From Strigamia acuminata (lineage: Eukaryota > Arthropoda > Chilopoda > Geophilomorpha > Linotaeniidae): 60,000 nt of DNA. A model generated the notes under the pieces. That model was given only the letters and a program-made list of their open reading frames with translations, was not told the DNA's origin and ran no database searches. The translations under genes were made by a program, and so were the position numbers. Below are positions 23,725 through 60,000 of this stretch, in pieces; position 1 is the first letter of the stretch; the number at the start of each line of letters is the position of its first letter. The stretch lies in assembly GCA_949358305.1 (NCBI GenBank), contig OX442317.1, forward strand, positions 12,530,186 to 12,590,185. The letters run 5' to 3'.

Positions 23725-23728
23725 GCAC
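23725..23728 (+). repeat. Target-site duplication GCAC, right
   Basis: Partner of 17762-17765, immediately after the 3' LTR. Satellite resumes in the same reverse orientation and in register with the broken monomer on the left. Confidence 0.9.
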
Positions 23729-37996: not shown

Positions 37997-40900
37997 TTTC
38001 TGAATGTTCTGAAATAGTGTTTAAACCTTAGTAGAAAGCTTCAATGTAAGTTTTAGCAACATCCAAGCAATAATTTGAAAGAATAAACTTTTGATCTCAT
38101 TTGACGTCACAGTTGACTTAGCACAAACACCACAAGACCAATGTGTCTGAATGTTCTGAAATAGTGTTTAAACCTTAGTAGAAGGCTTCAATGTAAGTTT
38201 TAGCAACATCCAAGCAATGATTTTGGAGAATAGACTTTTGATCTCATCACAGTAGACTTAGCACAAACATCACAAGACTAATGTCTCTGAATGTTTTGAA
38301 ATAGTGTTTAAACCTTAGTAGAAAGCTTTAATGTAAGTTTTAGCAACATCCAAGAAATGATTTGGGAAAATAGACTTTTGATCTCATCACAGTTGACTTA
38401 GCACAAACACCACAAGACCAATGTCTCTAAATGTTCTGAAATAGTGTTTAAACCTTAGTAGACGGCTTCAATGTAAGTTTTAGCAACATCTAAGCAATGA
38501 TTTGGGAGAATAGACTTTTGATCTCATCACAGTTGACTTAGCACAAACATCACAAGACCAATGTCTCTGAATGTTTTGAAATAGTGTTTAAACCTTAGTA
38601 GAAAGCTTTAATGTAAGTTTTAGCAACATCCAAGCAATAATTTGAAAGAATAAACTTTTGATCTCATTTGACATCACAGTTGACTTAGCACAAACACCAC
38701 AAACCAATGTCTCTGAATGTTCTGAAATAGTGTTTAAACCTTAGTAGAAGGCTTCAATGTAAGTTTTAGCAACATCCAAGCAATGATTTGGGAGAATAGA
38801 CTTTTGATCTCATCACAGTTGACTTAGCACAAACACCACAAGACCAATGTCTCTGAATGTTTAGAAATAGTATTTAAACCTTAGTAGAAGGCTTCAATGT
38901 AAGTGTTAGCAACATCCAAGCAATAATTTGAAAGAATAAACTTTTGATCTCATTTGACATCACAGTTGACTTAGCACAAACACCACAAACCAATGTCTCT
39001 GAATGTTCTGAAATAGTGTTTAAACCTTAGTAGAAGGCTTCAATGTAAGTGTTAGCAACATCCAAGCAATAATTTGAAAGAATAAACTTTTGATCTCATT
39101 TGACATCACAGTTGACTTAGCACAAACATCACAAGACCAATGTCTCTGAATGTTCTGAAATAGTGTTTAAACCTTAGTAGAAGGCTTCAATGTAAGTTTT
39201 AGCAACATCCAAACAATGATTTGGAAGAATAAACTTTTGATCCCATTTGACATCACAGTTGACTTAGCACAAACACCACAAACCAATGTCTCTGAATGTT
39301 CTGAAATAGTGTTTAAACCTTAGTAGAAGGCTTCAATGTAAGTTTTAGCAACATCCAAGCAATGATTTGGGAGAATAGACTTTTGATCTCATCACAGTTG
39401 ACTTAGCACAAACATCACAAGACCAATGTCTCTGAATGTTTTGAAATAGTGTTTAAACCTTAGTAGAAAGCTTTAATGTAAGTTTTAGCAACATCCAAGC
39501 AATGATTTGGGAGAATAGACTTTTGATCTCATCACAGTTGACTTAGCACAAACATCACAAGACCAATGTCTCTGAATGTTTTGAAATAGTGTTTAAACCT
39601 TAGTAGAAAGCTTTAATGTAAGTTTTAGCAACATCCAAGAAATGATTTGGGAAAATAGACTTTTGATCTCATCACAGTTGACTTAGCACAAACACCACAA
39701 GACCAATGTCTCTAAATGTTCTGAAATAGTGTTTAAACCTTAGTAGACGGCTTCAATGTAAGTTTTAGCAACATCTAAGCAATGATTTGGGAGAATAGAC
39801 TTTTGATCTCATCACAGTTGACTTAGCACAAACACCACAAGACCAATGTCTCTGAATGTTCTGAAATAGTGTTTAAACTTTAGTAGAAAGCTTTAATGTA
39901 AGTTTTAGCAACATCCAAGCAATGATTTGAAAGAATAAACTTTTGATCTCATTTGACATCACAGTTGACTTAGCACAAACATCACAAGACCAATGTCTCT
40001 GAATGTTCTGAAATAGTGTTTAAACCTTAGTAGAAGGCTTCAATGTAAGTTTTAGCAACATCCAAGCAATGATTTGGAAGAATAAACTTTTGATCCCATT
40101 TGACATCACAGTTGACTTAGCACAAACATCACAAGACCAATGTTTCTGAATGTTCTGAAATAGTGTTTAAATCTTAGTAGAAAGCTTCAATGTAAGTTTT
40201 AGCAACATCCAAGCAATAATTTGAAAGAATAAACTTTTGATCTCATTTGACGTCACAGTTGACTTAGCACAAACATCACAAGACCAATGTCTCTGAATGT
40301 TCTGAAATAGTGTTTAAACCTTAGTAGAAGGCTTCAATGTAAGTTTTAGCAACATCCAAACAATGATTTGGAAGAATAAACTTTTGATCCCATTTGACAT
40401 CACAGTTGACTTAGCACAAACACCACAAACCAATGTCTCTGAATGTTCTGAAATAGTGTTTAAACCTTAGTAGAAGGCTTCAATGTAAGTTTTAGCAACA
40501 TCCAAGCAATGATTTGGGAGAATAGACTTTTGATCTCATCACAGTTGACTTAGCACAAACATCACAAGACCAATGTCTCTGAATGTTTTGAAATAGTGTT
40601 TAAACCTTAGTAGAAAGCTTTAATGTAAGTTTTAGCAACATCCAAGCAATGATTTGGGAGAATAGACTTTTGATCTCATCACAGTTGACTTAGCACAAAC
40701 ATCACAAGACCAATGTCTCTGAATGTTTTGAAATAGTGTTTAAACCTTAGTAGAAAGCTTTAATGTAAGTTTTAGCAACATCCAAGAAATGATTTGGGAA
40801 AATAGACTTTTGATCTCATCACAGTTGACTTAGCACAAACACCACAAGACCAATGTCTCTAAATGTTCTGAAATAGTGTTTAAACCTTAGTAGACGGCTT

Positions 40901-43900
40901 CAATGTAAGTTTTAGCAACATCTAAGCAATGATTTGGGAGAATAGACTTTTGATCTCATCACAGTTGACTTAGCACAAACACCACAAGACCAATGTCTCT
41001 GAATGTTCTGAAATAGTGTTTAAACTTTAGTAGAAAGCTTTAATGTAAGTTTTAGCAACATCCAAGCAATGATTTGAAAGAATAAACTTTTGATCTCATT
41101 TGACATCACAGTTGACTTAGCACAAACATCACAAGACCAATGTCTCTGAATGTTCTGAAATAGTGTTTAAACCTTAGTAGAAGGCTTCAATGTAAGTTTT
41201 AGCAACATCCAAGCAATGATTTGGAAGAATAAACTTTTGATCCCATTTGACATCACAGTTGACTTAGCACAAACATCACAAGACCAATGTTTCTGAATGT
41301 TCTGAAATAGTGTTTAAATCTTAGTAGAAAGCTTCAATGTAAGTTTTAGCAACATCCAAGCAATAATTTGAAAGAATAAACTTTTGATCTCATTTGACGT
41401 CACAGTTGACTTAGCACAAACACCACAAGACCAATGTGTCTGAATGTTCTGAAATAGTGTTTAAACCTTAGTAGAAGGCTTCAATGTAAGTTTTAGCAAC
41501 ATCCAAGCAATGATTTTGGAGAATAGACTTTTGATCTCATCACAGTTGACTTAGCACAAACATCACAAGACCAATGTCTCTGAATGTTCTGAAATAGTGT
41601 TTAAACCTTAGTAGAAAGCTTTAATGTAAGTTTTAGCAACATCCAAGCAATAATTTGAAAGAATAAACTTTTGATCTTATTTGACGTCACAGTTGACTTA
41701 GCACAAACACCACAAGACCAATGTCTCTGAATGTTTAGAAATAGTGTTTAAACCTTAGTAGAAGGCTTCAATGTAAGTGTTAGCAACATCCAAGCAATAA
41801 TTTGAAAGAATAAACTTTTGATCTCATTTGACATCACAGTTGACTTAGCACAAACACCACAAACCAATGTCTCTGAATGTTCTGAAATAGTGTTTAAACC
41901 TTAGTAGAAGGCTTCAATGTAAGTTTTAGCAACATCCAAGCAATGATTTAGGAGAATAGACTTTTGATCTCATCACAGTTGACTTAGCACAAACATCACA
42001 AGACCAATGTCTCTGAATGTTTTGAAATAGTGTTTAAACCTTAGTAAAAAGCTTTAATGTAAGTTTTAGCAACATCCAAGCAATGATTTGGGAGAATAGA
42101 CTTTTGATCTCATCACAGTTGACTTAGCACAAACACCACAAGACCAATGTCTCTAAATGTTCTGAAATAGTGTTTAAACCTTAGTAGACGGCTTCAATGT
42201 AAGTTTTAGCAACATCCAAGCAATGATTTGGGAGAATAGACTTTTGATCTCATCACAGTTGACTTAGCACAAACACCACAAACCAATGTCTCTGAATGTT
42301 CTGAAATAGTGTTTAAACCTTAGTAGAAGGCTTCAATGTAAGTTTTAGCAACATCTAAGCAATGATTTTGGAGAATAGACTTTTGATCTCATCACAGTTG
42401 ACTTAGCACAAACACCACAAGACCAATGTCTCTGAATGTTTAGAAATAGTGTTTAAACCTTAGTAGAAAGCTTCAATGTAAGTTTTAGCAACATCCAAGC
42501 AATGATTTGAAAGAATAAACTTTTGATCTCATTTGACATCACAGTTGACTTAGCACAAACATCACAAGACCAATGTCTCTGAATGTTCTGAAATAGTGTT
42601 TAAACCTTAGTAGAAGGCTTCAATGTAAGTGTTAGCAACATCCAAGCAATAATTTGAAAGAATAAATTTTTGATCTCATTTGACATCACAGTTGACTTAG
42701 CACAAACATCACAAGACCAATGTCTCTGAATGTTCTGAAATAGTGTTTAAACCTTAGTAGAAGGCTTCAATGTAAGTTTTAGCAACATCCAAGCAATGAT
42801 TTGGGAGAATAGACTTTTGATCTCATCACAGTTGACTTAGCACAAACACCACAAACCAATGTCTCTGAATGTTCTGAAATAGTGTTTAAACCTTAGTAGA
42901 AGGCTTCAATGTAAGTTTTAGCAACATCCAAGCAATGATTTGAAAGAATAAACTTTTGATCTCATTTGACATCACAGTTGACTTAGCACAAACACCACAA
43001 GACCAATGTGTCTGAATGTTCTGAAATAGTGTTTAAACCTTAGTAGAAGGCTTCAATGTAAGTTTTAGCAACATCCAAGCAATGATTTAGGAGAATAGAC
43101 TTTTGATCTCATCACAGTTGACTTAGCACAAACATCACAAGACCAATGTCTCTGAATGTTCTGAAATAGTGTTTAAACCTTAGTAGAAGGCTTCAATGTA
43201 AGTTTTAGCAACATCCAAGCAATGATTTGAAAGAATAAACTTTTGATCTCATCACAGTTGACTTAGCACAAACATCACAAGACCAATGTCTCTAAATGTT
43301 CTGAAATAGTGTTTAAACCTTAGTAGAAAGCTTTAATGTAAGTTTTAGCAACATCCAAGCAATGATTTGAAAGAATAAACTTTTGATCTCATTTGACATC
43401 ACAGTTGACTTAGCACAAACACCACAAACCAATGTCTCTGAATGTTCTGAAATAGTGTTTAAACCTTAGTAGAAGGCTTCAATGTAAGTTTTAGCAACAT
43501 CCAAGCAATGATTTGGGAGAATAGACTTTTGATCTCATCACAGTTGACTTAGCACAAACACCACAAGACCAATGTCTCTGAATGTTTAGAAATAGTGTTT
43601 AAACCTTAGTAGAAGGCTTCAATGTAAGTGTTAGCAACATCCAAGCAATAATTTGAAAGAATAAACTTTTGATCTCATTTGACATCACCGTTGACTTAGC
43701 ACAAACACCACAAACCAATGTCTCTGAATGTTCTGAAATAGTGTTTAAACCTTAGTAGAAGGCTTCAATGTAAGTTTTAGCAACATCCAAGCAATGATTT
43801 AGGAGAATAGACTTTTGATCTCATCACAGTTGACTTAGCACAAACATCACAAGACCAATGTCTCTGAATGTTTTGAAATAGTGTTTAAACCTTAGTAAAA

Positions 43901-46900
43901 AGCTTTAATGTAAGTTTTAGCAACATCCAAGCAATGATTTGGGAGAATAGACTTTTGATCTCATCACAGTTGACTTAGCACAAACATCACAAGACCAATG
44001 TCTCTGAATGTTTTGAAATAGTGTTTAAACCTTAGTAAAAAGCTTTAATGTAAGTTTTAGCAACATCCAAGCAATGATTTGGGAGAATAGACTTTTGATC
44101 TCATCACAGTTGACTTAGCACAAACACCACAAGACCAATGTCTCTGAATGTTCTGAAATAGTGTTTAAACCTTAGTAGAAGGCTTCAATGTAAGTTTTAG
44201 CAACATCCAAGCAATGATTTGGAAGAATAAACTTTTGATCCCATTTGACATCACAGTTGACTTAGCACAAACATCACAAGACCAATGTTTCTGAATGTTC
44301 TGAAATAGTGTTTAAACCTTAGTAGAAAGCTTCAATGTAAGTTTTAGCAACATCCAAGCAATAATTTGAAAGAATAAACTTTTGATCTCATTTGACGTCA
44401 CAGTTGACTTAGCACAAACACCACAAGACCAATGTGTCTGAATGTTCTGAAATAGTGTTTAAACCTTAGTAAAAAGCTTTAATGTAAGTTTTAGCAACAT
44501 CCAAGCAATGATTTAGGAGAATAGACTTTTGATCTCATCACAGTTGACTTAGCACAAACATCACAAGACCAATGTCTCTGAATGTTTTGAAATAGTGTTT
44601 AAACCTTAGTAAAAAGCTTTAATGTAAGTTTTAGCAACATCCAAGCAATGATTTGGGAGAATAGACTTTTGATCTCATCACAGTTGACTTAGCACAAACA
44701 TCACAAGACCAATGTCTCTGAATGTTTTGAAATAGTGTTTAAACCTTAGTAAAAAGCTTTAATGTAAGTTTTAGCAACATCCAAGCAATGATTTGGGAGA
44801 ATAGACTTTTGATCTCATCACAGTTGACTTAGCACAAACACCACAAGACCAATGTCTCTGAATGTTCTGAAATAGTGTTTAAACCTTAGTAGAAGGCTTC
44901 AATGTAAGTTTTAGCAACATCCAAGCAATGATTTGGAAGAATAAACTTTTGATCCCATTTGACATCACAGTTGACTTAGCACAAACATCACAAGACCAAT
45001 GTTTCTGAATGTTCTGAAATAGTGTTTAAACCTTAGTAGAAAGCTTCAATGTAAGTTTTAGCAACATCCAAGCAATAATTTGAAAGAATAAACTTTTGAT
45101 CTCATTTGACGTCACAGTTGACTTAGCACAAACACCACAAGACCAATGTGTCTGAATGTTCTGAAATAGTGTTTAAACCTTAGTAGAAGGCTTCAATGTA
45201 AGTTTTAGCAACATCCAAGCAATGATTTTGGAGAATAGACTTTTGATCTCATCACAGTAGACTTAGCACAAACATCACAAGACTAATGTCTCTGAATGTT
45301 TTGAAATAGTGTTTAAACCTTAGTAGAAAGCTTTAATGTAAGTTTTAGCAACATCCAAGAAATGATTTGGGAAAATAGACTTTTGATCTCATCACAGTTG
45401 ACTTAGCACAAACACCACAAGACCAATGTCTCTAAATGTTCTGAAATAGTGTTTAAACCTTAGTAGACGGCTTCAATGTAAGTTTTAGCAACATCTAAGC
45501 AATGATTTGGGAGAATAGACTTTTGATCTCATCACAGTTGACTTAGCACAAACATCACAAGACCAATGTCTCTGAATGTTTTGAAATAGTGTTTAAACCT
45601 TAGTAGAAAGCTTTAATGTAAGTTTTAGCAACATCCAAGCAATGATTTGGGAGAATAGACTTTTGATCTCATCACAGTTGACTTAGCACAAACATCACAA
45701 GACCAATGTCTCTGAATGTTCTGAAATAGTGTTTAAACCTTAGTAGAAAGCTTTAATGTAAGTTTTAGCAACATCCAAGAAATGATTTGGGAAAATAGAC
45801 TTTTGATCTCATCACAGTTGACTTAGCACAAACACCACAAGACCAATGTCTCTGAATGTTCTGAAATAGTGTTTAAACCTTAGTAGAAGGCTTCAATGTT
45901 AGTTTTAGCAACATCCAAGCAATAATTTGAAAGAATAAACTTTTGATCTCATTTGACATCACAGTTGACTTAGCACAAACACCACAAACCAATGTCTCTG
46001 AATGTTCTGAAATAGTGTTTAAACCTTAGTAGAAGGCTTCAATGTAAGTTTTAGCAACATCCAAGCAATGATTTGGGAGAATAGACTTTTGATCTCATCA
46101 CAGTTGACTTAGCACAAACACCACAAGACCAATGTCTCTGAATGTTTAGAAATAGTATTTAAACCTTAGTAGAAGGCTTCAATGTAAGTGTTAGCAACAT
46201 CCAAGCAATAATTTGAAAGAATAAACTTTTGATCTCATTTGACATCACAGTTGACTTAGCACAAACACCACAAACCAATGTCTCTGAATGTTCTGAAATA
46301 GTGTTTAAACCTTAGTAGAAGGCTTCAATGTAAGTGTTAGCAACATCCAAGCAATAATTTGAAAGAATAAACTTTTGATCTCATTTGACATCACAGTTGA
46401 CTTAGCACAAACATCACAAGACCAATGTCTCTGAATGTTCTGAAATAGTGTTTAAACCTTAGTAGAAGGCTTCAATGTAAGTTTTAGCAACATCCAAACA
46501 ATGATTTGGAAGAATAAACTTTTGATCCCATTTGACATCACAGTTGACTTAGCACAAACACCACAAACCAATGTCTCTGAATGTTCTGAAATAGTGTTTA
46601 AACCTTAGTAGAAGGCTTCAATGTAAGTTTTAGCAACATCCAAGCAATGATTTGGGAGAATAGACTTTTGATCTCATCACAGTTGACTTAGCACAAACAT
46701 CACAAGACCAATGTCTCTGAATGTTTTGAAATAGTGTTTAAACCTTAGTAGAAAGCTTTAATGTAAGTTTTAGCAACATCCAAGCAATGATTTGGGAGAA
46801 TAGACTTTTGATCTCATCACAGTTGACTTAGCACAAACATCACAAGACCAATGTCTCTGAATGTTTTGAAATAGTGTTTAAACCTTAGTAGAAAGCTTTA

Positions 46901-48083
46901 ATGTAAGTTTTAGCAACATCCAAGAAATGATTTGGGAAAATAGACTTTTGATCTCATCACAGTTGACTTAGCACAAACACCACAAGACCAATGTCTCTAA
47001 ATGTTCTGAAATAGTGTTTAAACCTTAGTAGACGGCTTCAATGTAAGTTTTAGCAACATCTAAGCAATGATTTGGGAGAATAGACTTTTGATCTCATCAC
47101 AGTTGACTTAGCACAAACACCACAAGACCAATGTCTCTGAATGTTCTGAAATAGTGTTTAAACTTTAGTAGAAAGCTTTAATGTAAGTTTTAGCAACATC
47201 CAAGCAATGATTTGAAAGAATAAACTTTTGATCTCATTTGACATCACAGTTGACTTAGCACAAACATCACAAGACCAATGTCTCTGAATGTTCTGAAATA
47301 GTGTTTAAACCTTAGTAGAAGGCTTCAATGTAAGTTTTAGCAATATCCAAGCAATGATTTGGAAGAATAAACTTTTGATCCCATTTGACATCACAGTTGA
47401 CTTAGCACAAACATCACAAGACCAATGTTTCTGAATGTTCTGAAATAGTGTTTAAATCTTAGTAGAAAGCTTCAATGTAAGTTTTAGCAACATCCAAGCA
47501 ATAATTTGAAAGAATAAACTTTTGATCTCATTTGACGTCACAGTTGACTTAGCACAAACACCACAAGACCAATGTGTCTGAATGTTCTGAAATAGTGTTT
47601 AAACCTTAGTAGAAGGCTTCAATGTAAGTTTTAGCAACATCCAAGCAATGATTTTGGAGAATAGACTTTTGATCTCATCACAGTTGACTTAGCACAAACA
47701 TCACAAGACCAATGTCTCTGAATGTTCTGAAATAGTGTTTAAACCTTAGTAGAAAGCTTTAATGTAAGTTTTAGCAACATCCAAGCAATAATTTGAAAGA
47801 ATAAACTTTTGATCTTATTTGACGTCACAGTTGACTTAGCACAAACACCACAAGACCAATGTCTCTGAATGTTTAGAAATAGTGTTTAAACCTTAGTAGA
47901 AGGCTTCAATGTAAGTGTTAGCAACATCCAAGCAATAATTTGAAAGAATAAACTTTTGATCTCATTTGACATCACAGTTGACTTAGCACAAACACCACAA
48001 ACCAATGTCTCTGAATGTTCTGAAATAGTGTTTAAACCTTAGTAGAAGGCTTCAATGTAAGTTTTAGCAACATCCAAGCAATG
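37480..48083 (-). repeat. Paralogous pair of satellite segments differing by whole units
   Basis: About 37480-41945 and 44485-48083 share rare variants: CACAGTAGACTTAG (38251/45256, shift 7005), AATAGTATTTAAACC (38871/46156, shift 7285) and TTTAAATCTTAG (40171 and 41318 against 47456). The shift changes by 280 bp, which is two short monomers. It later drops by 1147 bp, because the left segment has one extra 1147-bp unit (40260-41406). Gain and loss of whole units is visible directly. Confidence 0.8.
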
Positions 48084-50380
48084 ATTTGGAAGAATAGACT
48101 TTTGATCTCATCACAGTTGACTTAGCAAAAACATCACAAGACCAATGTCTCTGAATGTTTTGAAATAGTGTTTAAACCTTAGTAGAAAGCTTTAATGTAA
48201 GTTTTAGCAACATCCAAGCAATAATTTGGGAGAATAGACTTTTGATCTCATCACAGTTGACTTAGCACAAACATCACAAGACCAATGTCTCTGAATGTTT
48301 TGAAATAGTGTTTAAACCTTAGTAGAAAGCTTTAATGTAAGTTTTAGCAACATCCAAGCAATGATTTGGGAGAATAGACTTTTGATCTCATCACAGTTGA
48401 CTTAGCACAAACATCACAAGACCAATGTCTCTGAATGTTCTGAAATAGTGTTTAAACCTTAGTAGAAAGCTTTAATGTAAGTTTTAGCAACATCCAAGAA
48501 ATGATTTGGGAAAATAGACTTTTGATCTCATCACAGTTGACTTAGCACAAACACCACAAGACCAATGTCTCTGAATGTTCTGAAATAGTGTTTAAACTTT
48601 AGTAGAAAGCTTTAATGTAAGTTTTAGCAACATCCAAGCAATGATTTGAAAGAATAAACTTTTGATCTCATTTGACATCACAGTTGATTTAGCACAAACA
48701 TCACAAGACCAATGTCTCTGAATATTCTGAAATAGTGTTTAAACCTTAGTAGAAGGCTTCAATGTAAGTTTTAGCAACATCCAAGCAATGATTTGGAAGA
48801 ATAAACTTTTGATCCCATTTGACATCACAGTTGACTTAGCACAAACATCACAAGACCAATGTTTCTGAATGTTCTGAAATAGTGTTTAAACCTTAGTAGA
48901 AAGCTTTAATGTAAGTTTTAGCAACATCCAAGCAATAATTTGAAAGAATAAACTTTTGATCTTATTTGACGTCACAGTTGACTTAGCACAAACACCACAA
49001 GACCAATGTCTCTGAATGTTTAGAAATAGTGTTTAAACCTTAGTAGAAGGCTTCAATGTAAGTGTTAGCAACATCCAAGCAATAATTTGAAAGAATAAAC
49101 TTTTGATCTCATTTGACATCACAGTTGACTTAGCACAAACACCACAAACCAATGTCTCTGAATGTTCTGAAATAGTGTTTAAACCTTAGTAGAAGGCTTC
49201 AATGTAAGTTTTAGCAACATCCAAGCAATGATTTGGGAGAATAGACTTTTGATCTCATCACAGTTGACTTAGCAAAAACATCACAAGACCAATGTCTCTG
49301 AATGTTTTGAAATAGTGTTTAAACCTTAGTAGAAAGCTTTAATGTAAGTTTTAGCAACATCCAAGCAATAATTTGAGAGAATAGACTTTTGATCTCATCA
49401 CAGTTGACTTAGCACAAACATCACAAGACCAATGTCTCTGAATGTTTTGAAATAGTGTTTAAACCTTAGTAGAAAGCTTTAATGTAAGTTTTAGCAACAT
49501 CCAAGCAATGATTTGGGAGAATAGACTTTTGATCTCATCACAGTTGACTTAGCACAAACATCACAAGACCAATGTCTCTGAATGTTCTGAAATAGTGTTT
49601 AAACCTTAGTAGAAAGCTTTAATGTAAGTTTTAGCAACATCCAAGAAATGATTTGGGAAAATAGACTTTTGATCTCATCACAGTTGACTTAGCACAAACA
49701 CCACAAGACCAATGTCTCTGAATGTTCTGAAATAGTGTTTAAACTTTAGTAGAAAGCTTTAATGTAAGTTTTAGCAACATCCAAGCAATGATTTGAAAGA
49801 ATAAACTTTTGATCTCATTTGACATCACAGTTGATTTAGCACAAACATCACAAGACCAATGTCTCTGAATATTCTGAAATAGTGTTTAAACCTTAGTAGA
49901 AGGCTTCAATGTAAGTTTTAGCAACATCCAAGCAATGATTTGGAAGAATAAACTTTTGATCCCATTTGACATCACAGTTGACTTAGCACAAACATCACAA
50001 GACCAATGTTTCTGAATGTTCTGAAATAGTGTTTAAACCTTAGTAGAAAGCTTCAATGTAAGTTTTAGCAACATCCAAGCAATAATTTGAAAGAATAAAC
50101 TTTTGATCTCATTTGACGTCACAGTTGACTTAGCACAAACACCACAAGACCAATGTCTCTGAATGTTTAGAAATAGTGTTTAAACCTTAGTAGAAGGCTT
50201 CAATGTAAGTGTTAGCAACATCCAAGCAATAATTTGAAAGAATAAACTTTTGATCTCATTTGACATCACAGTTGACTTAGCACAAACACCACAAACCAAT
50301 GTCTCTGAATGTTCTGAAATAGTGTTTAAACCTTAGTAGAAGGCTTCAATGTAAGTTTTAGCAACATCCAAGCAATGATT
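47720..50380 (-). repeat. 1147-bp higher-order repeat, second site
   Basis: The same eight-monomer unit as at 14545-16910: TTAGCAAAAAC at 48124 and 49271, CAGTTGATTTAGC at 48684 and 49831, both at a shift of 1147. There are about 2.3 copies here. The two sites are some 31 kb apart with different higher-order units between them. Confidence 0.87.
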
Positions 50381-53300
50381 TTGGAGAATAGACTTTTGAT
50401 CTCATCACAGTTGACTTAGCACAAACACCACAAACCAATGTCTCTAAATGTTCTGAAATAGTGTTTAAAAATTAGTAGAAAGCTTTAATGTAAGTTTTAG
50501 CAACATCCAAGCAATGATTTGAAAGAATAGACTTTTGATCTCATCACAGTTGACTTAGCACAAACATCACAAGACCAATGTCTCTGAATGTTTTGAAATA
50601 GTGTTTAAACCTTAGTAAAAAGCTTTAATGTAAGTTTTAGCAACATCCAAGCAATGATTTGGGAGAATAGACTTTTGATCTCATCACAGTTGACTTAGCA
50701 CAAACACCACAAGACCAATGTCTCTGAATGTTTAGAAATAGTGTTTAAACCTTAGTAGAAGACTTCAATGTAAGTGTTAGCAACATCCAAGCAATAATTT
50801 GAAAGAATAAACTTTTGATCTCATTTGACATCACAGTTGACTTAGCACAAACACCACAAGACCAATGTCTCTGAATGTTTTGAAATAGTGTTTAAACCTT
50901 AGTAAAAAGCTTTAATGTAAGTTTTAGCAACATCCAAGCAATGATTTGGGAGAATAGACTTTTGATCTCATCACAGTTGACTTAGCACAAACACCACAAG
51001 ACCAATGTCTCTAAATGTTCTGAAATAGTGTTTAAACCTTAGTAGACGGCTTCAATGTAAGTTTTAGCAACATCCAAGCAATGATTTGGGAGAATAGACT
51101 TTTGATCTCATCACAGTTGACTTAGCACAAACACCACAAACCAATGTCTCTGAATGTTCTGAAATAGTGTTTAAACCTTAGTAGAAAGCTTTAATGTAAG
51201 TTTTAGCAACATCCAAGCAATGATTTGAAAGAATAAACTTTTGATCTTATTTGACGTCACAGTTGACTTAGCACAAACACCACAAGACCAATGTATCTGA
51301 ATGTTCTGAAATAGTGTTTAAACCTTAGTAGAAGGCTTCAATGTAAGTTTTAGCAACATCCAAGCAATGATTTTGGAGAATAGACTTTTGATCTCATCAC
51401 AGTTGACTTAGCACAAACATCACAAGACCAATGTCTCTAAATGTTCTGAAATAGTGTTTAAACCTTAGTAGAAAGCTTTAATGTAAGTTTTAGCAACATC
51501 CAAGCAATGATTTGAAAGAATAAACTTTTGATCTCATTTGACATCACAGTTGACTTAGCACAAACACCACAAACCAATGTCTCTGAATGTTCTGAAATAG
51601 TGTTTAAACCTTAGTAGAAGGCTTCAATGTAAGTTTTAGCAACATCCAAGCAATGATTTGGGAGAATAGACTTTTGATCTCATCACAGTTGACTTAGCAC
51701 AAACACCACAAGACCAATGTCTCTGAATGTTTAGAAATAGTGTTTAAACCTTAGTAGAAGACTTCAATGTAAGTGTTAGCAACATCCAAGCAATAATTTG
51801 AAAGAATAAACTTTTGATCTCATTTGACATCACAGTTGACTTAGCACAAACACCACAAACCAATGTCTCTGAATGTTCTGAAATAGTGTTTAAACCTTAG
51901 TAGAAGGCTTCAATGTAAGTTTTAGCAACATCCAAGCAATGATTTTGGAGAATAGACTTTTGATCTCATCACAGTTGACTTAGCACAAACACCACAAACC
52001 AATGTCTCTAAATGTTCTGAAATAGTGTTTAAAAATTAGTAGAAAGCTTTAATGTAAGTTTTAGCAACATCCAAGCAATGATTTGAAAGAATAAACTTTT
52101 GATCTCATTTGACATCACAGTTGACTTAGCACAAACACCACAAACCAATGTCTCTGAATGTTCTGAAATAGTGTTTAAACCTTAGTAGAAGGCTTCAATG
52201 TAAGTTTTAGCAACATCCAAGCAATGATTTGGGAGAATAGACTTTTGATCTCATCACAGTTGACTTAGCACAAACATCACAAGACCAATGTCTCTGAATG
52301 TTTTGAAATAGTGTTTAAACCTTAGTAAAAAGCTTTAATGTAAGTTTTAGCAACATCCAAGCAATGATTTGGGAGAATAGACTTTTGATCTCATCACAGT
52401 TGACTTAGCACAAACACCACAAGACCAATGTCTCTAAATGTTCTGAAATAGTGTTTAAACCTTAGTAGACGGCTTCAATGTAAGTTTTAGCAACATCCAA
52501 GCAATGATTTGGGAGAATAGACTTTTGATCTCATCACAGTTGACTTAGCACAAACACCACAAACCAATGTCTCTGAATGTTCTGAAATAGTGTTTAAACC
52601 TTAGTAGAAGGCTTCAATGTAAGTTTTAGCAACATCCAAGCAATAATTTGAAAGAATAAACTTTTGATCTCATTTGACGTCACAGTTGACTTAGCACAAA
52701 CACCACAAGACCAATGTGTCTGAATGTTCTGAAATAGTGTTTAAACCTTAGTAGAAGGCTTCAATGTAAGTTTTAGCAACATCCAAGCAATGATTTTGGA
52801 GAATAGACTTTTGATCTCATCACAGTTGACTTAGCACAAACATCACAAGACCAATGTCTCTGAATGTTCTGAAATAGTGTTTAAACCTTAGTAGAAGGCT
52901 TTAATATAAGTTTTAGCAACATCCAAGCAATGATTTGAAAGAATAAACTTTTGATCTCATTTGACATCACAGTTGACTTAGCACAAACATCACAAGACCA
53001 ATGTCTCTGAATGTTCTGAAATAGTGTTTAAACCTTAGTAGAAGGCTTCAATGTAAGTGTTAGCAACATCCAAGCAATAATTTGAAAGAATAAATTTTTG
53101 ATCTCATTTGACATCACAGTTGACTTAGCACAAAAATCACAAGACCAATGTCTCTGAATGTTCTGAAATAGTGTTTAAACCTTAGTAGAAGGCTTCAATG
53201 TAAGTTTTAGCAACATCCAAGCAATGATTTGGGAGAATAGACTTTTGATCTCATCACAGTTGACTTAGCACAAACATCACAAGACCAATGTCTCTGAATG

Positions 53301-54980
53301 TTTTGAAATAGTGTTTAAACCTTAGTAGAAAGCTTTAATGTAAGTTTTAGCAACATCCAAGCAATGATTTGGGAGAATAGACTTTTGATCTCATCACAGT
53401 TGACTTAGCACAAACACCACAAACCAATGTCTCTGAATGTTCTGAAATAGTGTTTAAACCTTAGTAGAAGGCTTCAATGTAAGTTTTAGCAACATCCAAG
53501 CAATGATTTGGGAGAATAGACTTTTGATCTCATCACAGTTGACTTAGCACAAACACCACAAGACCAATGTCTCTGAATGTTTAGAAATAGTGTTTAAACC
53601 TTAGTAGAAGACTTCAATGTAAGTTTTAGCAACATCCAAGCAATGATTTTGGAGAATAGACTTTTGATCTCATCACAGTTGACTTAGCACAAACACCACA
53701 AGACCAATGTCTCCGAATGTTCTGAAATAGTGTTTAAACTTTAGTAGAAAGCTTTAATGTAAGTTTTAGCAACATCCAAGCAATGATTTGAAAGAATAAA
53801 CTTTTTATCTCATTTGACATCACAGTTGACTTAGCACAAACATCACAAGACCAATGTCTCTGAATGTTTAGAAATAGTGTTTAAACCTTAGTAGAAGACT
53901 TCAATGTAAGTGTTAGCAACATCCAAGCAATAATTTGAAAGAATAAACTTTTGATCTCATTTGACATCACAGTTGACTTAGCACAAACACCACAAGACCA
54001 ATGTGTCTGAATGTTCTGAAATAGTGTTTAAACCTTAGTAGAAGGCTTCAATGTAAGTTTTAGCAACATCCAAGCAATGATTTTGGAGAATAGACTTTTG
54101 ATCTCATCACAGTTGACTTAGCACAAACACCACAAGACCAATGTCTCCGAATGTTCTGAAATAGTGTTTAAACTTTAGTAGAAAGCTTTAATGTAAGTTT
54201 TAGCAACATCCAAGCAATGATTTGAAAGAATAAACTTTTTATCTCATTTGACATCACAGTTGACTTAGCACAAACATCACAAGACCAATGTCTCTGAATG
54301 TTCTGAAATAGTGTTTAAACCTTAGTAGAAGACTTCAATGTAAGTGTTAGCAACATCCAAGCAATAATTTGAAAGAATAAACTTTTGATCTCATTTGACA
54401 TCACAGTTGACTTAGCACAAACACCACAAACCAATGTCTCTGAATGTTCTGAAATAGTGTTTAAACCTTAGTAGAAGGCTTCAATGTAAGTTTTAGCAAC
54501 ATCCAAGCAATGATTTAGGAGAATAGACTTTTGATCTCATCACAGTTGACTTAGCACAAACATCACAAGACCAATGTCTCTGAATGTTCTGAAATAGTGT
54601 TTAAACCTTAGTAGAAGGCTTCAATGTAAGTGTTAGCAACATCCAAGCAATAATTTGAAAGAATAAATTTTTGATCTCATTTGACATCACAGTTGACTTA
54701 GCACAAACATCACAAGACCAATGTCTCTGAATGTTCTGAAATAGTGTTTAAACCTTAGTAGAAGGCTTCAATGTAAGTTTTAGCAACATCCAAGCAATGA
54801 TTTGGGAGAATAGACTTTTGATCTCATCACAGTTGACTTAGCACAAACATCACAAGACCAATGTCTCTGAATGTTTTGAAATAGTGTTTAAACCTTAGTA
54901 GAAGACTTCAATGTAAGTGTTAGCAACATCCAAGCAATAATTTGAAAGAATAAACTTTTGATCTCATTTGACATCACAGT

Positions 54981-55936
54981 TGTTTCGAGCAACAGAAAGG
55001 AGGAAAGAGAGACCACAACTGCTCGTCAATTTGATAGTAGTTTGATTTTATGTGTTCGAAAATGTAAAGAAGAGTTACTAATTTCGGTCTTATAATTGTA
55101 TTATTTATTTAGCAAATATCTAATCTTTTTCTGTTGTAATAGGAATTTTACATGTCTTTTTTGTGTGCCAATTTTCAGTAAAGACAATGTTTGTTAGGTA
55201 TTTTATCTCTTAGAATGACAAGGTCAAGGTTTAGGAATTTTTAGTCTTGTTTTCCAATGTTTTCATGCTATGTTTACCTATTTCTAAGTCTTGTCCTGTT
55301 CCCAGTTCAGTTGTGAAGGCGGAATGACGGGTTTGAAGCATCTGAGTTGCTTTAAAGGTGCATTAGAAAAGAAGGAATTGTTAATTTTGTAATGGATTGC
55401 AATTAATGCATTTTTACAGTGTATTTGACTTGCTTTAGATGCGTTATTTGCATGTTTAGTTAAGTTTATTCCTATTCTATTTGTTATAATTCTTTCCAAT
55501 GATTTCTGTTAATTTTAGTTGATTTTATCTCTATTATGAGGCACAATGCAAGCTTTAACTTATGTTATTTATGAATTTAGTCACTAGGTGCCTCATGAAT
55601 TTGTTGTTGCTATAGAATTGTTGTTGTTATGAAGTTGTTACACTCTTGTTATGAAGAATTAGATGTAGTTAAGTTGAATTTGCCTCCATGTTAATGTTTT
55701 GAAATGATTAAAAGCATTATCTGGATTTTTCTACACAAAGGTTTATTTTATTCAACATCCAACATGTGTGAGTAGGGAGATTTAACCCCAAACTCCCTGG
55801 AGCAGCTCCCCACAAGATCCAGTGCAGAAACTCAAGTCAACTCATTTCTCCTCTCAGTATAGGCCTATGGGAAATTTGCCAAGAATTCCCCATCGCGTTA
55901 CAACTCGTCGCATCACGGCAGTGGCGAGTTGCAACA
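54981..55936 (+). repeat. 5' LTR of the BEL/Pao element
   Basis: 956 bp, beginning TGTTTCGAGCAACA where the satellite breaks off after CATCACAGT, and ending GAGTTGCAACA. The right boundary is set by the primer-like TGGTACCGT four bases later. ATTAAA at 55707-55712 followed by GGTTTATTTTATTCAAC and TGTGAGTAGGGAG resembles the poly(A) region of the minus-strand solo LTR. The 3' LTR is outside the window, so the boundaries are inferred from motifs only. Confidence 0.8.
55707..55712 (+). promoter_or_regulatory. ATTAAA poly(A) signal in the LTR, candidate
   Basis: ATTAAA lies about 225 bp before the LTR end and about 30 bp before the GGTTTATTTTA stretch shared with the solo LTR. It is a plausible R-region signal; no transcript evidence is available. 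Confidence 0.4.
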
Positions 55937-55940
55937 TTTT

Positions 55941-55958
55941 TGGTACCGTGACCCAAGG
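55941..55958 (+). promoter_or_regulatory. Primer binding site (tRNA-primed), candidate
   Basis: TGGTACCGTGACCCAAGG begins four bases (TTTT) after the LTR end GCAACA, matching the arrangement in the element at 17766. An 18-nt site starting TGG is what a tRNA 3' end would pair with. I cannot name the tRNA. Confidence 0.7.
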
Positions 55959-56035
55959 ATTTTGTTGTTGCCAACCAGGATTTTCGTCCAGTTCTTCCAG
56001 TGGATTTCAGTGCACGTCATTGCATTTTTAGCCAG

Positions 56036-57067: not shown

Positions 57068-60000
57068 ATGGCAACTGCAGCTGGTTTGACCGCGGAAGCA
57101 GCGGAAGAGAAAGAAACACAATGGCAAGCCAAGGCCCAAGGAGCAGAGGATCTGCTCTCGACATCTGCAAACGTTCTCGACGGGGGTGAGCTTGAAGCTC
57201 TCCACGCAACAATAGATGCGCAGTTGAGTGACCTTATTGATGAGCTCGCTGTCTTTAAAGACAAGATAGAACGTTCAGATTACCTGCTTAGTTTGAGACG
57301 TCTCGAAGACATTAGGACTAAGGTCAATCTTCTTAAGCAAAGGACGAAATTTTCAAAACAGATGCAGGATAAGTTTGGGGCACATCCCGGCGGAAATACG
57401 CTAATGAATTCTGGATTTCTGAACAACTCCTCAATCATATCACGGAAGACTACAAAGCTTCCAAAGTTGACTCTGCAGAAATTCGACGGGAATCCGATGG
57501 AGTATAAGAGCTTCATGGATATGTTTTCAACCACAGTTGACGCCGATGCCGAGTTATCGAACGTCGAAAAACTTCAATATCTTAAATCAAGCTGTATCGG
57601 GGAAGCTGAAGTGGCGATTAAGTCGTACCCACTTACTAACGATTCGTATTTAATGGCACTTAGCAGTTTAGAAGGACTTTTTGGGTCAGAAGTAGCCCAA
57701 AAGAACGCTCTGGCGAGGAAAATTCGTGAAGCCGAAGCAGTTAAAGATTTGTACCCAATCCAGCCAGTAAAATCTCTATTGACGTCCCTCACCGGTGCTT
57801 TCCGAACATTAGAACAGTTGAAGTTCCCAGTTACGACTACTGGATTATTTCTAATCCCGGAATTATTGCGGAAGTTTCCACCGGAATTGGGAAGACGATT
57901 TCATAGGATTTACAAAGGAAACGTGGAAAACGTTAATTTATTTCTCGAATTTGTAGCAAGCGAAGTCAGAGTAGCAGAATTATCAGACGATAGCGTATTT
58001 ACCAGTCAGAAAGTCACCAAGAAGAGTGAGAAACCAGCAACTAGAGAGCAAAAAGAAGAATTACGAGGGACCATGTCATCTTGCGCGGTTGCGCAAAATA
58101 CGTCATTCGGGTCCAATACGAAAGAATCATTCAAACCAAAATCAGGTCCAGTCCGGAAATTGATCTGTGCCTTCTGTGAAGGAGATCATTTCAACAATAA
58201 TTGCGACGCAAATCTGGAAGTTTCGGAGAAATACGACATCGTTAAGCGAAAACGTCTATGCTTTAATTGCCTGAGACCAAGCCATACAGTGGGTAACTGC
58301 CCTGTAAAATTTTGTTGCCGATCATGCGGTGGTCGACACCATTCTTCAATTTGTAACAGAGGTCATGCGGAAAAGCCACCTGATACCAAAGAAGAGAACG
58401 TCTCCGCCAACGTCTCGTTGTCGGTCTCAAGTGACGTCCAGCTAATGGTTTTCACAGCATTGTTCGTCCGAAAGAGTGGCGAAACAATCCCAGTTCGTGG
58501 ATTACTCGATCCGGGTAGTCATCGTTCATATATTACGAAGCGGTTAGCAAAGAAATTACACCTAAACAAGATTGAGACGTATCACACCATGACCCAGTGT
58601 CTGCTGAACAAGGAACCAGTTCCTACAACTCATGACGTGTTTAGATTCGAGTTGCAGTCTCGTCACGACAAGCAGAAAGTGTCTGTATTTGCTCTTGATA
58701 CCGACACACTTCCCAATATAAAGGGAGTGATAGATCACCAAACGCTGCAACAAATCAAGTCGTTTAATCTTGAGATGGCAGAACCACATCCCTCCGTGTC
58801 AGATGAGGTAGATGTCTTGATCGGAAGCGGAGCATGGTGGAAAATAATTCAAGCGGGAACGAAGAGAATTAGTCCAGAATTAGGAATGATGAAAACAGTT
58901 TTTGGATGGATTTTAAACGGACAAATTAACTCAAAAGAGCCTTCCATCTACAAAGACGATATCTCACTGGGAGATGTATCGTGTATGGCGATCGATTCTG
59001 GAAAGAAGATGACTTTCAACACTTCAAAAAAGGACAAAGGCGGGTTTGGACAGGCGAATTCCACATCAATGCCCGACGAGAAAAGCGAAAAGGGTGGAGT
59101 ACGAGCAAAAGGCGTCATCGCTTCTCGTTTTGCCGCGAGCCGCTCTAGCGAGCTGGAGGTACGGCATCCTGACGTCCCCATCGAATTGGAAATGGATGGA
59201 AAGCGGACGTTTAAAGGGATAAGGTCGGGCAAGATGGCGATTTCTCAGAGTCCTGACACACTGGAGTCTACGGAAAAGAAAGGAGAATTTCCGAAAAATT
59301 TCAAAAAAGATGAAGAAAAGGGTTTAAGTAAATGGAGGAAGATATTGAAATGGAGTCGCAAGAAACTCACCAATTCGCACAGAAGATCAAATGCAGTCAC
59401 AAAGGCCACGGGAAATATACATTTAGTAATTGGCCCAATGTTTTCTGGAAAAACTACTGCTTTACTTAATGTAATCCGAAATGAAGAAGAAAATTCTTGC
59501 CTGCTTGTTAAGCATTTGACAGACGTTAGATATAGTAAAGATGAAATGGTTAGCCACACCGGACAACGACGTCCAGCGGTTCGGGTCGCGTCGTTACAGG
59601 AAATCAAGAAAATTGCGGAGTCGGTCAAGACGATAGGTATCGACGAAGGGCAATTTTTCGGAGACATCGATTCGTTTTCCGACAAAATGGCGAACGAAGG
59701 AAAGAATGTAATAATTGCCGCTTTAAATGGTGATTTTAAGAGACAGGAATTCAAGGCAGTATCTAATCTCATTCCACTAGCGGAAACTATTGTCAAACTT
59801 CATGCCAAATGCCACTTTTGTGGAAACCAAGCGTCGTTCACCAAACGAATATCGGGTGAAACGCAAGTTCAGGTTGTGGGAGGAGAAGAGAGATACAAGC
59901 CAACGTGTCGTACCTGTTTTCAGAAATCAATCAATTCTATAGAAGTCAAGAGAAAGCTAATTAATGGAGCGGCACATTTAAGTTTAGCGATTTTGAATCG
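57068..60000 (+). CDS. gag-pol: Gag-protease-thymidine kinase polyprotein, 3' end beyond window
   Basis: 977 complete codons with no stop, running off the window. The start is ATG 57068: an in-frame TAA sits directly before it and the context (A at -3, G at +4) is good. Order of parts: N-terminal charged, probably helical segment (1-125); DUF1759-type Gag (about 131-305); CCHC knuckles (367-429); BEL/Pao-type aspartic protease with D481 and the LIGSG...VFGWILNG segment (457-618); lysine-rich linker (619-780); TK1-type thymidine kinase (about 781 onward). Gag should form the particle, the protease should cut the chain, and the kinase would phosphorylate thymidine inside or near the particle. 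RT and integrase are expected downstream but not seen. The kinase has no start codon of its own next to it, so it must be made as part of the polyprotein. Confidence 0.95.
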   Translation, partial: MATAAGLTAEAAEEKETQWQAKAQGAEDLLSTSANVLDGGELEALHATIDAQLSDLIDELAVFKDKIERSDYLLSLRRLEDIRTKVNLLKQRTKFSKQMQDKFGAHPGGNTLMNSGFLNNSSIISRKTTKLPKLTLQKFDGNPMEYKSFMDMFSTTVDADAELSNVEKLQYLKSSCIGEAEVAIKSYPLTNDSYLMALSSLEGLFGSEVAQKNALARKIREAEAVKDLYPIQPVKSLLTSLTGAFRTLEQLKFPVTTTGLFLIPELLRKFPPELGRRFHRIYKGNVENVNLFLEFVASEVRVAELSDDSVFTSQKVTKKSEKPATREQKEELRGTMSSCAVAQNTSFGSNTKESFKPKSGPVRKLICAFCEGDHFNNNCDANLEVSEKYDIVKRKRLCFNCLRPSHTVGNCPVKFCCRSCGGRHHSSICNRGHAEKPPDTKEENVSANVSLSVSSDVQLMVFTALFVRKSGETIPVRGLLDPGSHRSYITKRLAKKLHLNKIETYHTMTQCLLNKEPVPTTHDVFRFELQSRHDKQKVSVFALDTDTLPNIKGVIDHQTLQQIKSFNLEMAEPHPSVSDEVDVLIGSGAWWKIIQAGTKRISPELGMMKTVFGWILNGQINSKEPSIYKDDISLGDVSCMAIDSGKKMTFNTSKKDKGGFGQANSTSMPDEKSEKGGVRAKGVIASRFAASRSSELEVRHPDVPIELEMDGKRTFKGIRSGKMAISQSPDTLESTEKKGEFPKNFKKDEEKGLSKWRKILKWSRKKLTNSHRRSNAVTKATGNIHLVIGPMFSGKTTALLNVIRNEEENSCLLVKHLTDVRYSKDEMVSHTGQRRPAVRVASLQEIKKIAESVKTIGIDEGQFFGDIDSFSDKMANEGKNVIIAALNGDFKRQEFKAVSNLIPLAETIVKLHAKCHFCGNQASFTKRISGETQVQVVGGEERYKPTCRTCFQKSINSIEVKRKLINGAAHLSLAILN
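57458..57982 (+). other. Gag domain, DUF1759 type (residues 131-305)
   Basis: Begins LPKLTLQKFDGNPMEYKSF and continues through LSNVEKLQYLKSS and a region with SYPLTNDSYLMALSSLEGLFG. This is the usual layout of the Gag domain of BEL/Pao elements (Pfam DUF1759), which builds the virus-like particle. No gap or stop is seen. Confidence 0.85.
58166..58354 (+). other. Three CCHC zinc knuckles (residues 367-429)
   Basis: C367-X2-C370-X3-H374-X4-C379; C398-X2-C401-X4-H406-X4-C411; C417-X2-C420-X3-H424-X4-C429. The second is a canonical retroviral-type nucleocapsid knuckle; the first and third have the shorter C-X2-C-X3-H spacing. Together they form the nucleic-acid-binding part of Gag that packages element RNA. 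Confidence 0.92.
58436..58921 (+). other. BEL/Pao aspartic protease region, DUF1758 type (residues 457-618)
   Basis: A hydrophobic strand leads into LLDPGSHRSYITKRLAKKL, with D481 as the predicted catalytic aspartate, followed by LIGSGAWWKII (584 on) and TVFGWILNG (610-618). The enzyme would act as a dimer to cut the polyprotein. The active-site triplet is D-P-G where many retropepsins have D-S-G or D-T-G; activity should not be assumed. Confidence 0.85.
58922..59407 (+). other. Lysine-rich linker between protease and thymidine kinase (residues 619-780)
   Basis: About 160 residues of low complexity, rich in K, E, S and G, with no domain I recognise. It ends in a strongly basic stretch (754-773, containing KWRKILKWSRKK). 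It could be a flexible, cleavable spacer; the basic patch could bind nucleic acid or act in nuclear import. Part may be the normal protease-RT connector enlarged when the kinase was acquired. Confidence 0.6.
59408..60000 (+). other. Thymidine kinase domain, TK1 type (residues 781-977+)
   Basis: Transfers phosphate from ATP to thymidine, giving dTMP in the salvage route to dTTP. Visible motifs: P-loop GPMFSGKTT (G789-T797, K795), lid D819-V-R-Y822, catalytic E860 in IGIDEGQFF, AALNGDF with L886 and F890, F895, T925 in FTKR, VVGG, Y943, and zinc cysteines C915/C918 and C947/C950. Spacings match human TK1: Glu to first zinc Cys 55, Glu to the Leu of AAL-x-G 26, first Cys to Thr 10 and to Tyr 28, Cys pair to Cys pair 29. 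No catalytic residue is missing. One change from the human pattern is N887 where TK1 has Asp in ALDG. A dCK-type or herpesvirus-type kinase is excluded by these motifs. It continues to the window edge with residues beyond the TK1 core. Confidence 0.95.

What the first reader, a model, noticed from the sequence alone, without database searches (positions are those of the whole stretch)
59408..60000. TK1-type thymidine kinase fused in frame into a BEL/Pao retrotransposon polyprotein
A single open frame links BEL-type Gag, zinc knuckles, BEL-type protease and a complete-looking TK1 domain. TK1 enzymes are known from cells, large DNA viruses and phages. I know of no described LTR retrotransposon that carries one, though I cannot search. 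Inference: the element supplies dTMP at its own site of reverse transcription, useful in resting or germ cells where host TK1 is low. The closest known parallel is the dUTPase carried by some retroviruses.
Basis: partly seen in the sequence, partly recalled or inferred. Interest (0 to 1): 0.97.

Follow-up and report, generated by a model that had tools for sequence, protein, structure and literature searches.

The report
Centipede retrotransposon carrying a thymidine kinase
A centipede genome holds dozens of young copies of a BEL-type jumping element that lacks its own copying enzymes but carries, fused to its coat protein and protease, a DNA-building-block enzyme (thymidine kinase) that evolution has kept intact.

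Summary
The host is the centipede Strigamia acuminata. Window 54981 to 61104 (past the window end) is a 6.1-kb LTR element. It has 956-bp LTRs, identical over the 936 bp compared, a 4-bp target duplication inside a 140-bp satellite, a primer site, and one 995-aa ORF: BEL Gag, zinc knuckles, protease, TK1-type thymidine kinase. The 3' LTR starts 93 bp after the stop codon, so there is no reverse transcriptase, RNase H or integrase.

It is no one-off. Of 150 scored TK matches in the genome, 92 are Gag-protease-TK copies by frame length; 84 have an open frame of 995 aa or more. The lineages differ down to 52% protein identity. TK is under purifying selection (dN/dS 0.11-0.17 in the two most diverged usable pairs), like gag and protease; the linker is relaxed (0.47-0.63). 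An autonomous BEL family sits in the same clusters (63 of 72 copies near a Gag-TK copy, against 2 of 145 top-scoring BEL matches) and shares primer-site and LTR-end sequence.

Best reading: a semi-autonomous satellite of BEL whose particles carry a TK; kinase activity and dTMP supply are inferred. Further TK copies lie in three other repeat families.

The parts
23724..54967 (.). 140-bp satellite array that the element is inserted into
54977..54980 (+). CAGT target-site duplication, 5' copy (the 3' copy lies past the window end, after L009:6104)
54981..55936 (+). 5' LTR, 956 bp, TGTTTC...GCAACA; identical to the 3' LTR over the 936 bp compared; the 3' LTR lies past the window end at window-equivalent 60149-61104
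55941..55959 (+). putative primer-binding site TGGTACCGTGACCCAAGGA
   Evidence: the matching tRNA was not identified
57068..60000 (+). Gag-protease-TK ORF, 995 aa; the last 52 coding bases and the TAA lie past the window end
57482..57913 (+). BEL Gag core, DUF1759 (residues 139-282)
58166..58354 (+). three CCHC-type zinc knuckles (residues 367-429)
   Evidence: read from the sequence
58490..58924 (+). BEL-type aspartic protease (residues 475-619; LLDPGS at 58502)
   Evidence: Pfam scores under cut-off; BLASTP to an autonomous BEL frame
58988..59407 (+). fast-evolving linker between protease and TK (residues 641-780)
   Evidence: dN/dS 0.47-0.73 in the pairs where it could be computed
59411..59920 (+). 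TK1-type thymidine kinase domain (residues 782-951): P-loop at 59432, DxR at 59522, DEGQFF at 59642, Cys pairs at 59810 and 59906

Best explanation
This is a semi-autonomous BEL/Pao-derived LTR retrotransposon in which a TK1-type thymidine kinase stands where reverse transcriptase, RNase H and integrase should follow. SHOWN: LTRs, one intact Gag-protease-TK frame, no pol, dozens of near-identical copies, diverged subfamilies, and purifying selection on TK comparable to that on gag and protease. SUPPORTED: mobilisation in trans by an autonomous BEL family that sits in the same clusters and shares primer-site and LTR-end sequence. INFERRED: the element makes its own Gag-protease-TK particles or mixed particles with the partner's Gag-Pol, so thymidine kinase is carried in the particle at Gag stoichiometry. 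The kinase then turns thymidine into dTMP at the place of reverse transcription and so favours copying where thymidylate is limiting.
For: Anatomy. No pol between TK and 3' LTR: in 40 of 40 scored copies (of 100 candidates) a 401-bp query spanning the ORF end and the 3' LTR start matches end to end at 99-100%; also seen directly in L009 (93 bp from stop to LTR) and L037. Copies: 92 Gag-TK by frame length among 150 scored TK matches (205 candidates); 85 have a frame of 995 aa or more, 84 of these without a stop in the match. Selection: TK dN/dS 0.113 for L009-L002, 0.171 for L019-L026, 0.160 for L019-L020; gag C-part and protease 0.07-0.17 in the first two pairs; linker 0.47, 0.63, 0.68. Old fusion: the Gag-TK domains form one clade, 95/91 and 99/97, although whole frames are as little as 52% identical. 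Helper: 88 matches at 87 places of a related BEL family, many with frames of 1768-1770 aa; on chromosome-scale contigs 63 of 72 lie within 250 kb of a Gag-TK copy, against 2 of 145 top-scoring A17 BEL matches. The primer site of the Gag-TK copy in L026 is identical over 20 nt to that of helper L039, and the LTRs of helper L035/L038 start TGTTGCGAGCA against TGTTTCGAGCA here and end TTGCAACA in both. Motifs: P-loop GxxxxGKT, DEGQFF and both Cys pairs are kept in all 16 Gag-TK loci checked (15 places; L027 has one stop).
Against: No enzyme, transcript or particle data. Two positions near the nucleoside pocket (by recalled human TK1 structure) depart from the family: an Asp kept in 29 of the 30 other rows is Asn in the window's row, and a Gly invariant in all 31 rows is Val in the L019 subfamily; L037 has GLMYAGKT for the usual GPM. 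So activity may be altered. A TK alone gives dTMP, not dTTP. Helper and Gag-TK LTRs are otherwise dissimilar, their gag-protease parts only 38% identical, three of 20 primer-site letters differ between helper L039 and the window element, and no one helper of the two examined matches the window element in both primer site and LTR ends. The L009-L002 estimate has dS above 1. In close pairs with few changes protease looks looser (0.466 in L009-L021, 0.329 in L019-L027).
Confidence: 0.6

Rival explanations
1. The TK domain is kept as a structural module, not as an enzyme: TK1 proteins form tetramers (recalled), and fused behind Gag the domain could help particle assembly, stability or mixing with helper particles, with catalysis incidental.
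For: Purifying selection alone does not say which function is kept. Two positions near the pocket are changed. The fusion is one frame with Gag.
Against: The P-loop Lys, the catalytic Glu and all four Cys are kept in all 16 Gag-TK loci checked; a purely structural role would not need the P-loop lysine or the catalytic Glu.
Confidence: 0.2
2. The Gag-TK element is a mere hitch-hiker: the TK was captured by chance during template switching, like oncogenes in defective retroviruses, and the copies seen are a recent burst with no selected TK function.
For: Many copies are nearly identical, and the LTR pairs compared, in five copies and mostly in part, are 100% identical, so the amplification is recent. 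Gag-onc fusions that replace pol are an established retroviral accident (recalled).
Against: Subfamilies 52% identical over the whole frame both keep TK intact, and a truncated third lineage (74%) does too. TK dN/dS is 0.11-0.17 with a relaxed linker beside it as an internal control, and the domains are one clade. A chance passenger would have decayed.
Confidence: 0.08
3. The TK was acquired as a defence or competition device rather than to feed the element: altering the thymidine pool could handicap rival elements or blunt a dNTP-depleting host restriction factor.
For: Non-primate lentiviral dUTPase is described as critical mainly in non-dividing cells (PMC4531489, passages). TK genes of the same clade also sit in three other multicopy repeat families, as expected of a generally useful selfish gene.
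Against: No host factor was looked for, and a rise in dTMP would help rivals and helper as well.
Confidence: 0.12

Closest known systems
RLG_Quinta / RLG_Cereba pair of Einkorn wheat (Ty3/Gypsy; PMC11302176, passages read)
   Same: A non-autonomous element that keeps Gag plus an extra domain, lacks RT and integrase, shares primer site and LTR ends with an autonomous partner, and lies with it in one kind of region.
   Different: Plant Gypsy, not animal BEL; Quinta's extra domain has no known function, here it is a recognisable TK1 domain; here the protease is kept too; primer site and LTR ends are identical there, only similar here; whether the clusters here are centromeres is not known.
dUTPase-encoding retroviruses (PMC4531489, passages read)
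   Same: A retroelement that encodes an enzyme of the thymidylate pool.
   Different: Another enzyme and fold; those viruses keep pol (recalled); here TK stands where pol should follow.
AlkB (2-ODD) domain in Phalaenopsis Ty3/Gypsy elements (PMC9289625, abstract and outline read)
   Same: A cellular-type enzyme domain acquired and fixed in an LTR retrotransposon lineage.
   Different: Additional ORF in a 25-kb element, RNA demethylase; here an in-frame fusion to Gag-protease in an element without pol.
Gag-onc fusions of defective transforming retroviruses (recalled)
   Same: Foreign gene fused behind gag in place of pol; needs a helper.
   Different: Those are recent accidents; this fusion predates a split to 52% protein identity and is under purifying selection.
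Human cytosolic thymidine kinase TK1 (1w4r, 1xbt)
   Same: Same family, 41-44% identity in the best structural matches, same catalytic and zinc motifs.
   Different: Element TKs form their own clade; joining them with three arthropod TK1s is rejected (AU p=0.0027; the group was chosen after a first tree had been seen).

Membership tests
BEL/Pao LTR retrotransposon (Belpaoviridae; definition from PMC8742986, whole text read) | LTRs of 0.2-1.2 kb, element 4.2-10 kb | tested here: met
   LTR 956 bp, element 6124 bp. L037 of the other subfamily has 1358-bp LTRs, over the stated range.
BEL/Pao LTR retrotransposon | Primer-binding site after the 5' LTR, complementary to tRNA-Arg or tRNA-Gly | tested here: inconclusive
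   TGGTACCGTGA (TGGTGCCGTGA in L020) follows the LTR end in the Gag-TK copies whose 5' LTR end is in hand; the matching tRNA was not identified.
BEL/Pao LTR retrotransposon | BEL-type Gag with nucleocapsid | tested here: met
   DUF1759 E=4.8e-15, three knuckles, 38% identity to an autonomous BEL frame.
BEL/Pao LTR retrotransposon | Protease | tested here: met
   Pfam matches under cut-off, but aligned with the autonomous BEL frame to residue 639.
BEL/Pao LTR retrotransposon | Reverse transcriptase, RNase H and integrase in pol | tested here: not met
   None in the frame and no room before the 3' LTR. So: BEL-derived and non-autonomous, not a complete member.
TK1 family thymidine kinase (PF00265) | Score over the family's curated cut-off, full-length domain | tested here: met
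   185 bits against 20.6, profile 1-176 of 176.
TK1 family thymidine kinase (PF00265) | P-loop, catalytic Glu, DxR, zinc cysteines, lasso Tyr | tested here: met
   the roles of these residues are recalled.
TK1 family thymidine kinase (PF00265) | Thymidine phosphorylation | not testable with these tools
   Needs expression and assay.
Non-autonomous partner of an autonomous element (criteria as in PMC11302176) | Same primer site and LTR ends as the partner | tested here: inconclusive
   Primer site 20 of 20 nt between the Gag-TK copy in L026 and helper L039, 17 of 20 with the window element; LTR start 10 of 11 and last 8 bases identical with helper L038/L035; but no single helper of the two examined matches the window element in both.
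Non-autonomous partner of an autonomous element (criteria as in PMC11302176) | Same insertion landscape as the partner | tested here: met
   63 of 72 helper copies within 250 kb of a Gag-TK copy, 2 of 145 for the top-scoring A17 matches.

The most novel reading that the evidence does not exclude
A selfish thymidine kinase gene circulates in this centipede's mobile DNA. It was captured once from outside the sampled arthropod TK1 lineage. It then spread both as a Gag-protease-TK fusion in a satellite-dwelling BEL parasite, which packages the kinase in particles and uses it to win reverse transcription inside its helper's machinery, and as a stand-alone TK gene in at least three other multicopy repeat families, all under purifying selection. 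It would be the first retroelement-encoded nucleoside kinase.
Probability: 0.4. Interest if true: 0.93.

Novelty: new variant of a known kind. Interest (0 to 1): 0.86.

Why it matters
It would add a nucleotide-salvage kinase to the short list of enzymes that retroelements have made their own. It suggests that thymidylate supply limits retrotransposition in this animal strongly enough to be selected for in a parasite of a parasite. It also gives an animal BEL counterpart of the plant pair Cereba and Quinta. The first question is directly testable: one recombinant domain and one enzyme assay.

Tried and rejected
Rejected: misassembly or single copy. Rejected: a pol hidden downstream. Rejected: strict site-specific insertion; the window copy and L037 sit at the same satellite bases, but other copies have varied flanks. 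The 1118-aa and 1999-aa frames overlap repeat DNA that is open in several frames in contig C130, so I do not read them as TK fusions.

Led nowhere: a host TK1 gene with introns. Two queries with tick TK1 returned only element TKs by place and frame, at most 57% identical, but each list is cut at 150 (of 205 and 194 candidates), so absence is not shown. The type of the three other TK-bearing repeat families stayed open; a 67-residue piggyBac-type match lies near one family C copy on the other strand. ARAGORN found no tRNA in the mitochondrial contig with the bacterial code. A viral contig scan gave 15 loci, 27-39% identical. The structure model is middling (pLDDT 76, lasso region low), but its best PDB matches are human TK1. 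Whether an autonomous BEL has a Gag closer to Gag-TK than 38% is unknown: that search did not complete.

Limits of the counts: the genome search scores only the best candidates, so copy numbers are lower bounds and lean towards intact copies. The 92, 40, 13 and 5 were sorted by hand by frame length, score and the loci read; only 16 of the 92 lie in loci that I fetched and read. The 145 comparison BELs are the top-scoring 150 of 1068 A17 candidates less 5 on small contigs, not a random sample; the 72 helper and 74 Gag-TK copies likewise leave out 15 and 18 on small contigs. L002 and L036 are one place and hold the only copy seen of the third lineage, truncated in gag. In one search ten pairs were computed; further TK values not given elsewhere are 0.111 (L009-L021), 0.039 (L009-L004), 0.112 (L019-L027, 53 codons) and 0.181 (L020-L026); in three pairs TK was saturated at silent sites and gave no ratio. 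Relatives of this species could not be searched.
Full report
HOST. The window is contig C5 12530186-12590185 of a 237.5-Mb genome. Contig C1 is 66,985,994 bases and the mitochondrial contig 15,068; both match the assembly qcStrAcum1.1 of the geophilomorph centipede Strigamia acuminata (PMC10556566, passages read: longest scaffold 66,985,994 bp, mitochondrion 15.07 kb, PacBio and Hi-C, QV 59.6). COX1 is closest to a centipede (87%), then horseshoe crabs and another centipede (86%).

WHAT IS THERE. Most of the window is a 140-bp satellite. At 54981 an LTR begins. The 5' LTR (54981-55936) and the 3' LTR (window-equivalent 60149-61104, outside the window) are identical over the 936 bp compared. 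CAGT flanks both sides. A putative primer site follows the 5' LTR. One ORF from 57068 codes for 995 aa: BEL Gag (DUF1759), three knuckles, a BEL-type protease, a variable linker, and a TK1 domain at residues 782-951. The stop is 93 bp before the 3' LTR. There is no reverse transcriptase, RNase H or integrase.

COPIES. A Pfam TK search of the whole genome scored 150 of 205 candidates. By frame length, score and the loci read I sort these by hand into 92 Gag-protease-TK copies, 40 copies of a TK-only repeat (B), 13 of another (C) and 5 of a third (D). Of the 92, 85 have a frame of 995 aa or more, one of them with a stop in the match, so 84 are open. The window's 593-bp TK stretch is matched at 98-100% in 40 of 40 scored copies (55 candidates). 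A 401-bp query spanning the ORF end and the start of the 3' LTR is matched end to end at 99-100% in 40 of 40 scored (100 candidates), so none of those has a pol gene between TK and LTR. L037, of the second subfamily, has a full LTR pair of 1358 bp with no mismatch; in L019, L020 and L021 the parts of the pairs that could be compared (451, 400 and 132 bp) are also identical. No LTR pair was found round L036. The copies examined are therefore young.

AGE AND SELECTION. The subfamilies are far older than their copies: the whole frames of L009 and L019 are 52% identical; L009 and L002, a truncated copy of a third lineage, 74% over 716 aa. With Nei-Gojobori counts TK shows dN/dS 0.113 for L009-L002 (dS 1.03), 0.171 for L019-L026 (dS 0.23) and 0.160 for L019-L020 (dS 0.12). 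Gag C-part and protease give 0.07-0.17 in the first two pairs, while the linker gives 0.47, 0.63 and 0.68 in the three. In close pairs with few changes single values scatter: protease 0.466 in L009-L021 and 0.329 in L019-L027, gag N-part 0.354 in L019-L020. The relaxed linker is an internal control: TK is held about as tightly as the particle genes. The deepest pairs are saturated at silent sites in TK and were not used.

THE ENZYME. The nearest solved relatives are human TK1 and the predicted fold agrees, though the model is of middling confidence. P-loop GxxxxGKT, DEGQFF and both Cys pairs are kept in all 16 Gag-TK loci checked (15 places, one with a stop); DxR and the lasso tyrosine are in the window copy. 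Against full activity: an Asp kept in 29 of the 30 other aligned proteins is Asn here, and a Gly kept in all 31 rows is Val in the L019 subfamily.

ORIGIN. In two trees (57 and 34 rows) all element TKs included form one clade (100/96 and 99/96), split into Gag-TK (95/91 and 99/97) and the B, C and D families (94/84 and 89/80). Grouping them with the three arthropod TK1s is rejected (AU p=0.0027), with two cautions: branches are long, and the group was chosen after the first tree. So one TK lineage appears to have entered mobile DNA here and now sits in at least four repeat families; its donor is not resolved. B against C shows dN/dS 0.125 in TK (dS 1.08). I could not tell what kind of repeats B, C and D are.

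THE HELPER. L020 holds a BEL gag-pol frame interrupted by a Gag-TK copy (at most 457 of the 493 query residues are shared with its relatives). Its pol part finds 88 matches at 87 places, 72-100% identical, many with open frames of 1768-1770 aa. On chromosome-scale contigs 63 of 72 lie within 250 kb of a Gag-TK copy, against 2 of 145 of the top-scoring A17 matches and 2 of 21 of family B. Of the 74 Gag-TK copies on those contigs 63 lie within 250 kb, and 72 within 500 kb, of another. Primer sites are similar or identical (Gag-TK copy in L026 against helper L039: 20 of 20 nt; window element against L039: 17 of 20), LTR starts are 10 of 11 bases alike between the window element and helper L038, and both end in TTGCAACA. 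Beyond that the LTRs differ, so this looks like an old partnership, not a recent deletion product.

HOW IT PROBABLY WORKS. Shown: the anatomy, the copies and the selection. Supported: mobilisation in trans by the BEL family of the same clusters. Inferred: because TK is fused to Gag, the kinase enters particles in bulk; it makes dTMP from thymidine next to reverse transcription; this favours the element in cells short of thymidylate. Selection on a protein of a non-autonomous element implies that the protein acts preferentially on its own RNA or particle. The wheat pair Cereba and Quinta (PMC11302176, passages read) is the closest working model; dUTPase retroviruses (PMC4531489, passages) are the closest biochemical one.

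NOVELTY. A search of a database of 5.8 billion proteins for the TK domain in proteins of 537-1710 aa scored 882 candidates and gave two hits, an alga protein and a cockroach protein with ankyrin repeats (it needs shared 5-residue words). Paper searches for thymidine kinase with retrotransposon, BEL, retroelement or additional domain, and for Belpaoviridae with captured gene, showed no report of a TK in an LTR retrotransposon (open-access library only; I saw listings of 20 of 55, 3 of 3, 0, 15 of 424 and 15 of 100 papers). The BEL profile and survey looked at do not mention one (PMC8742986, whole text; PMC3118150, term search with no 'kinase'). Teratorn, a transposon-herpesvirus fusion, is stated to lack TK (PMC5601938, passages). 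I file it as a new variant of a known kind: a BEL-derived, semi-autonomous LTR element with an enzyme that I found in no described retroelement.

Noticed in passing
L014 (C1:25865000-25874900) and 39 further places: Family B: an intact 190-aa TK ORF in a repeat of more than 9 kb; 40 scored of 82 candidates, all about 100% identical in TK, dispersed over chromosomes and unplaced contigs. Repeat type unknown.
   Followed up: partly
L012, L016, L017, L018, L010, L011, L023: Family C: TK frames (mostly 216-269 aa, longer where repeat DNA is open) in another long repeat, 79% identical in TK DNA to family B; a short piggyBac transposase match lies on the other strand in L018.
   Followed up: partly
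L013, L022, L041, L043: Family D: five places with a 221-239-aa TK ORF; in L013 it is the only long ORF in a duplicated stretch of about 6 kb.
   Followed up: partly
C13 7.5-10.3 Mb, C8 6.8-7.9 Mb, C1 64.2-66.5 Mb, C5 12.3-15.6 Mb, C9 0.06-1.4 Mb: An autonomous BEL family and the Gag-TK elements share the same clusters, several near contig ends; several of the copies read lie in the 140-bp satellite; possible centromeres.
   Followed up: partly
window 58502-58534 and L020 frame: The protease active-site motif reads D-P-G-S in both the Gag-TK element and an autonomous BEL, not the usual D-S/T-G (recalled).
   Followed up: no
L004 near 3194: A Gag-TK 3' LTR is followed directly by another primer site, as in a tandem LTR-internal-LTR-internal-LTR array.
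   Followed up: no
start of both LTR types (window 54981, L037): LTRs begin with a short palindrome-like stretch (TGTTTCGAGCAACA, TGTTGCTAGCAACA), and a purine-rich tract lies inside the LTR start rather than just before it.
   Followed up: no
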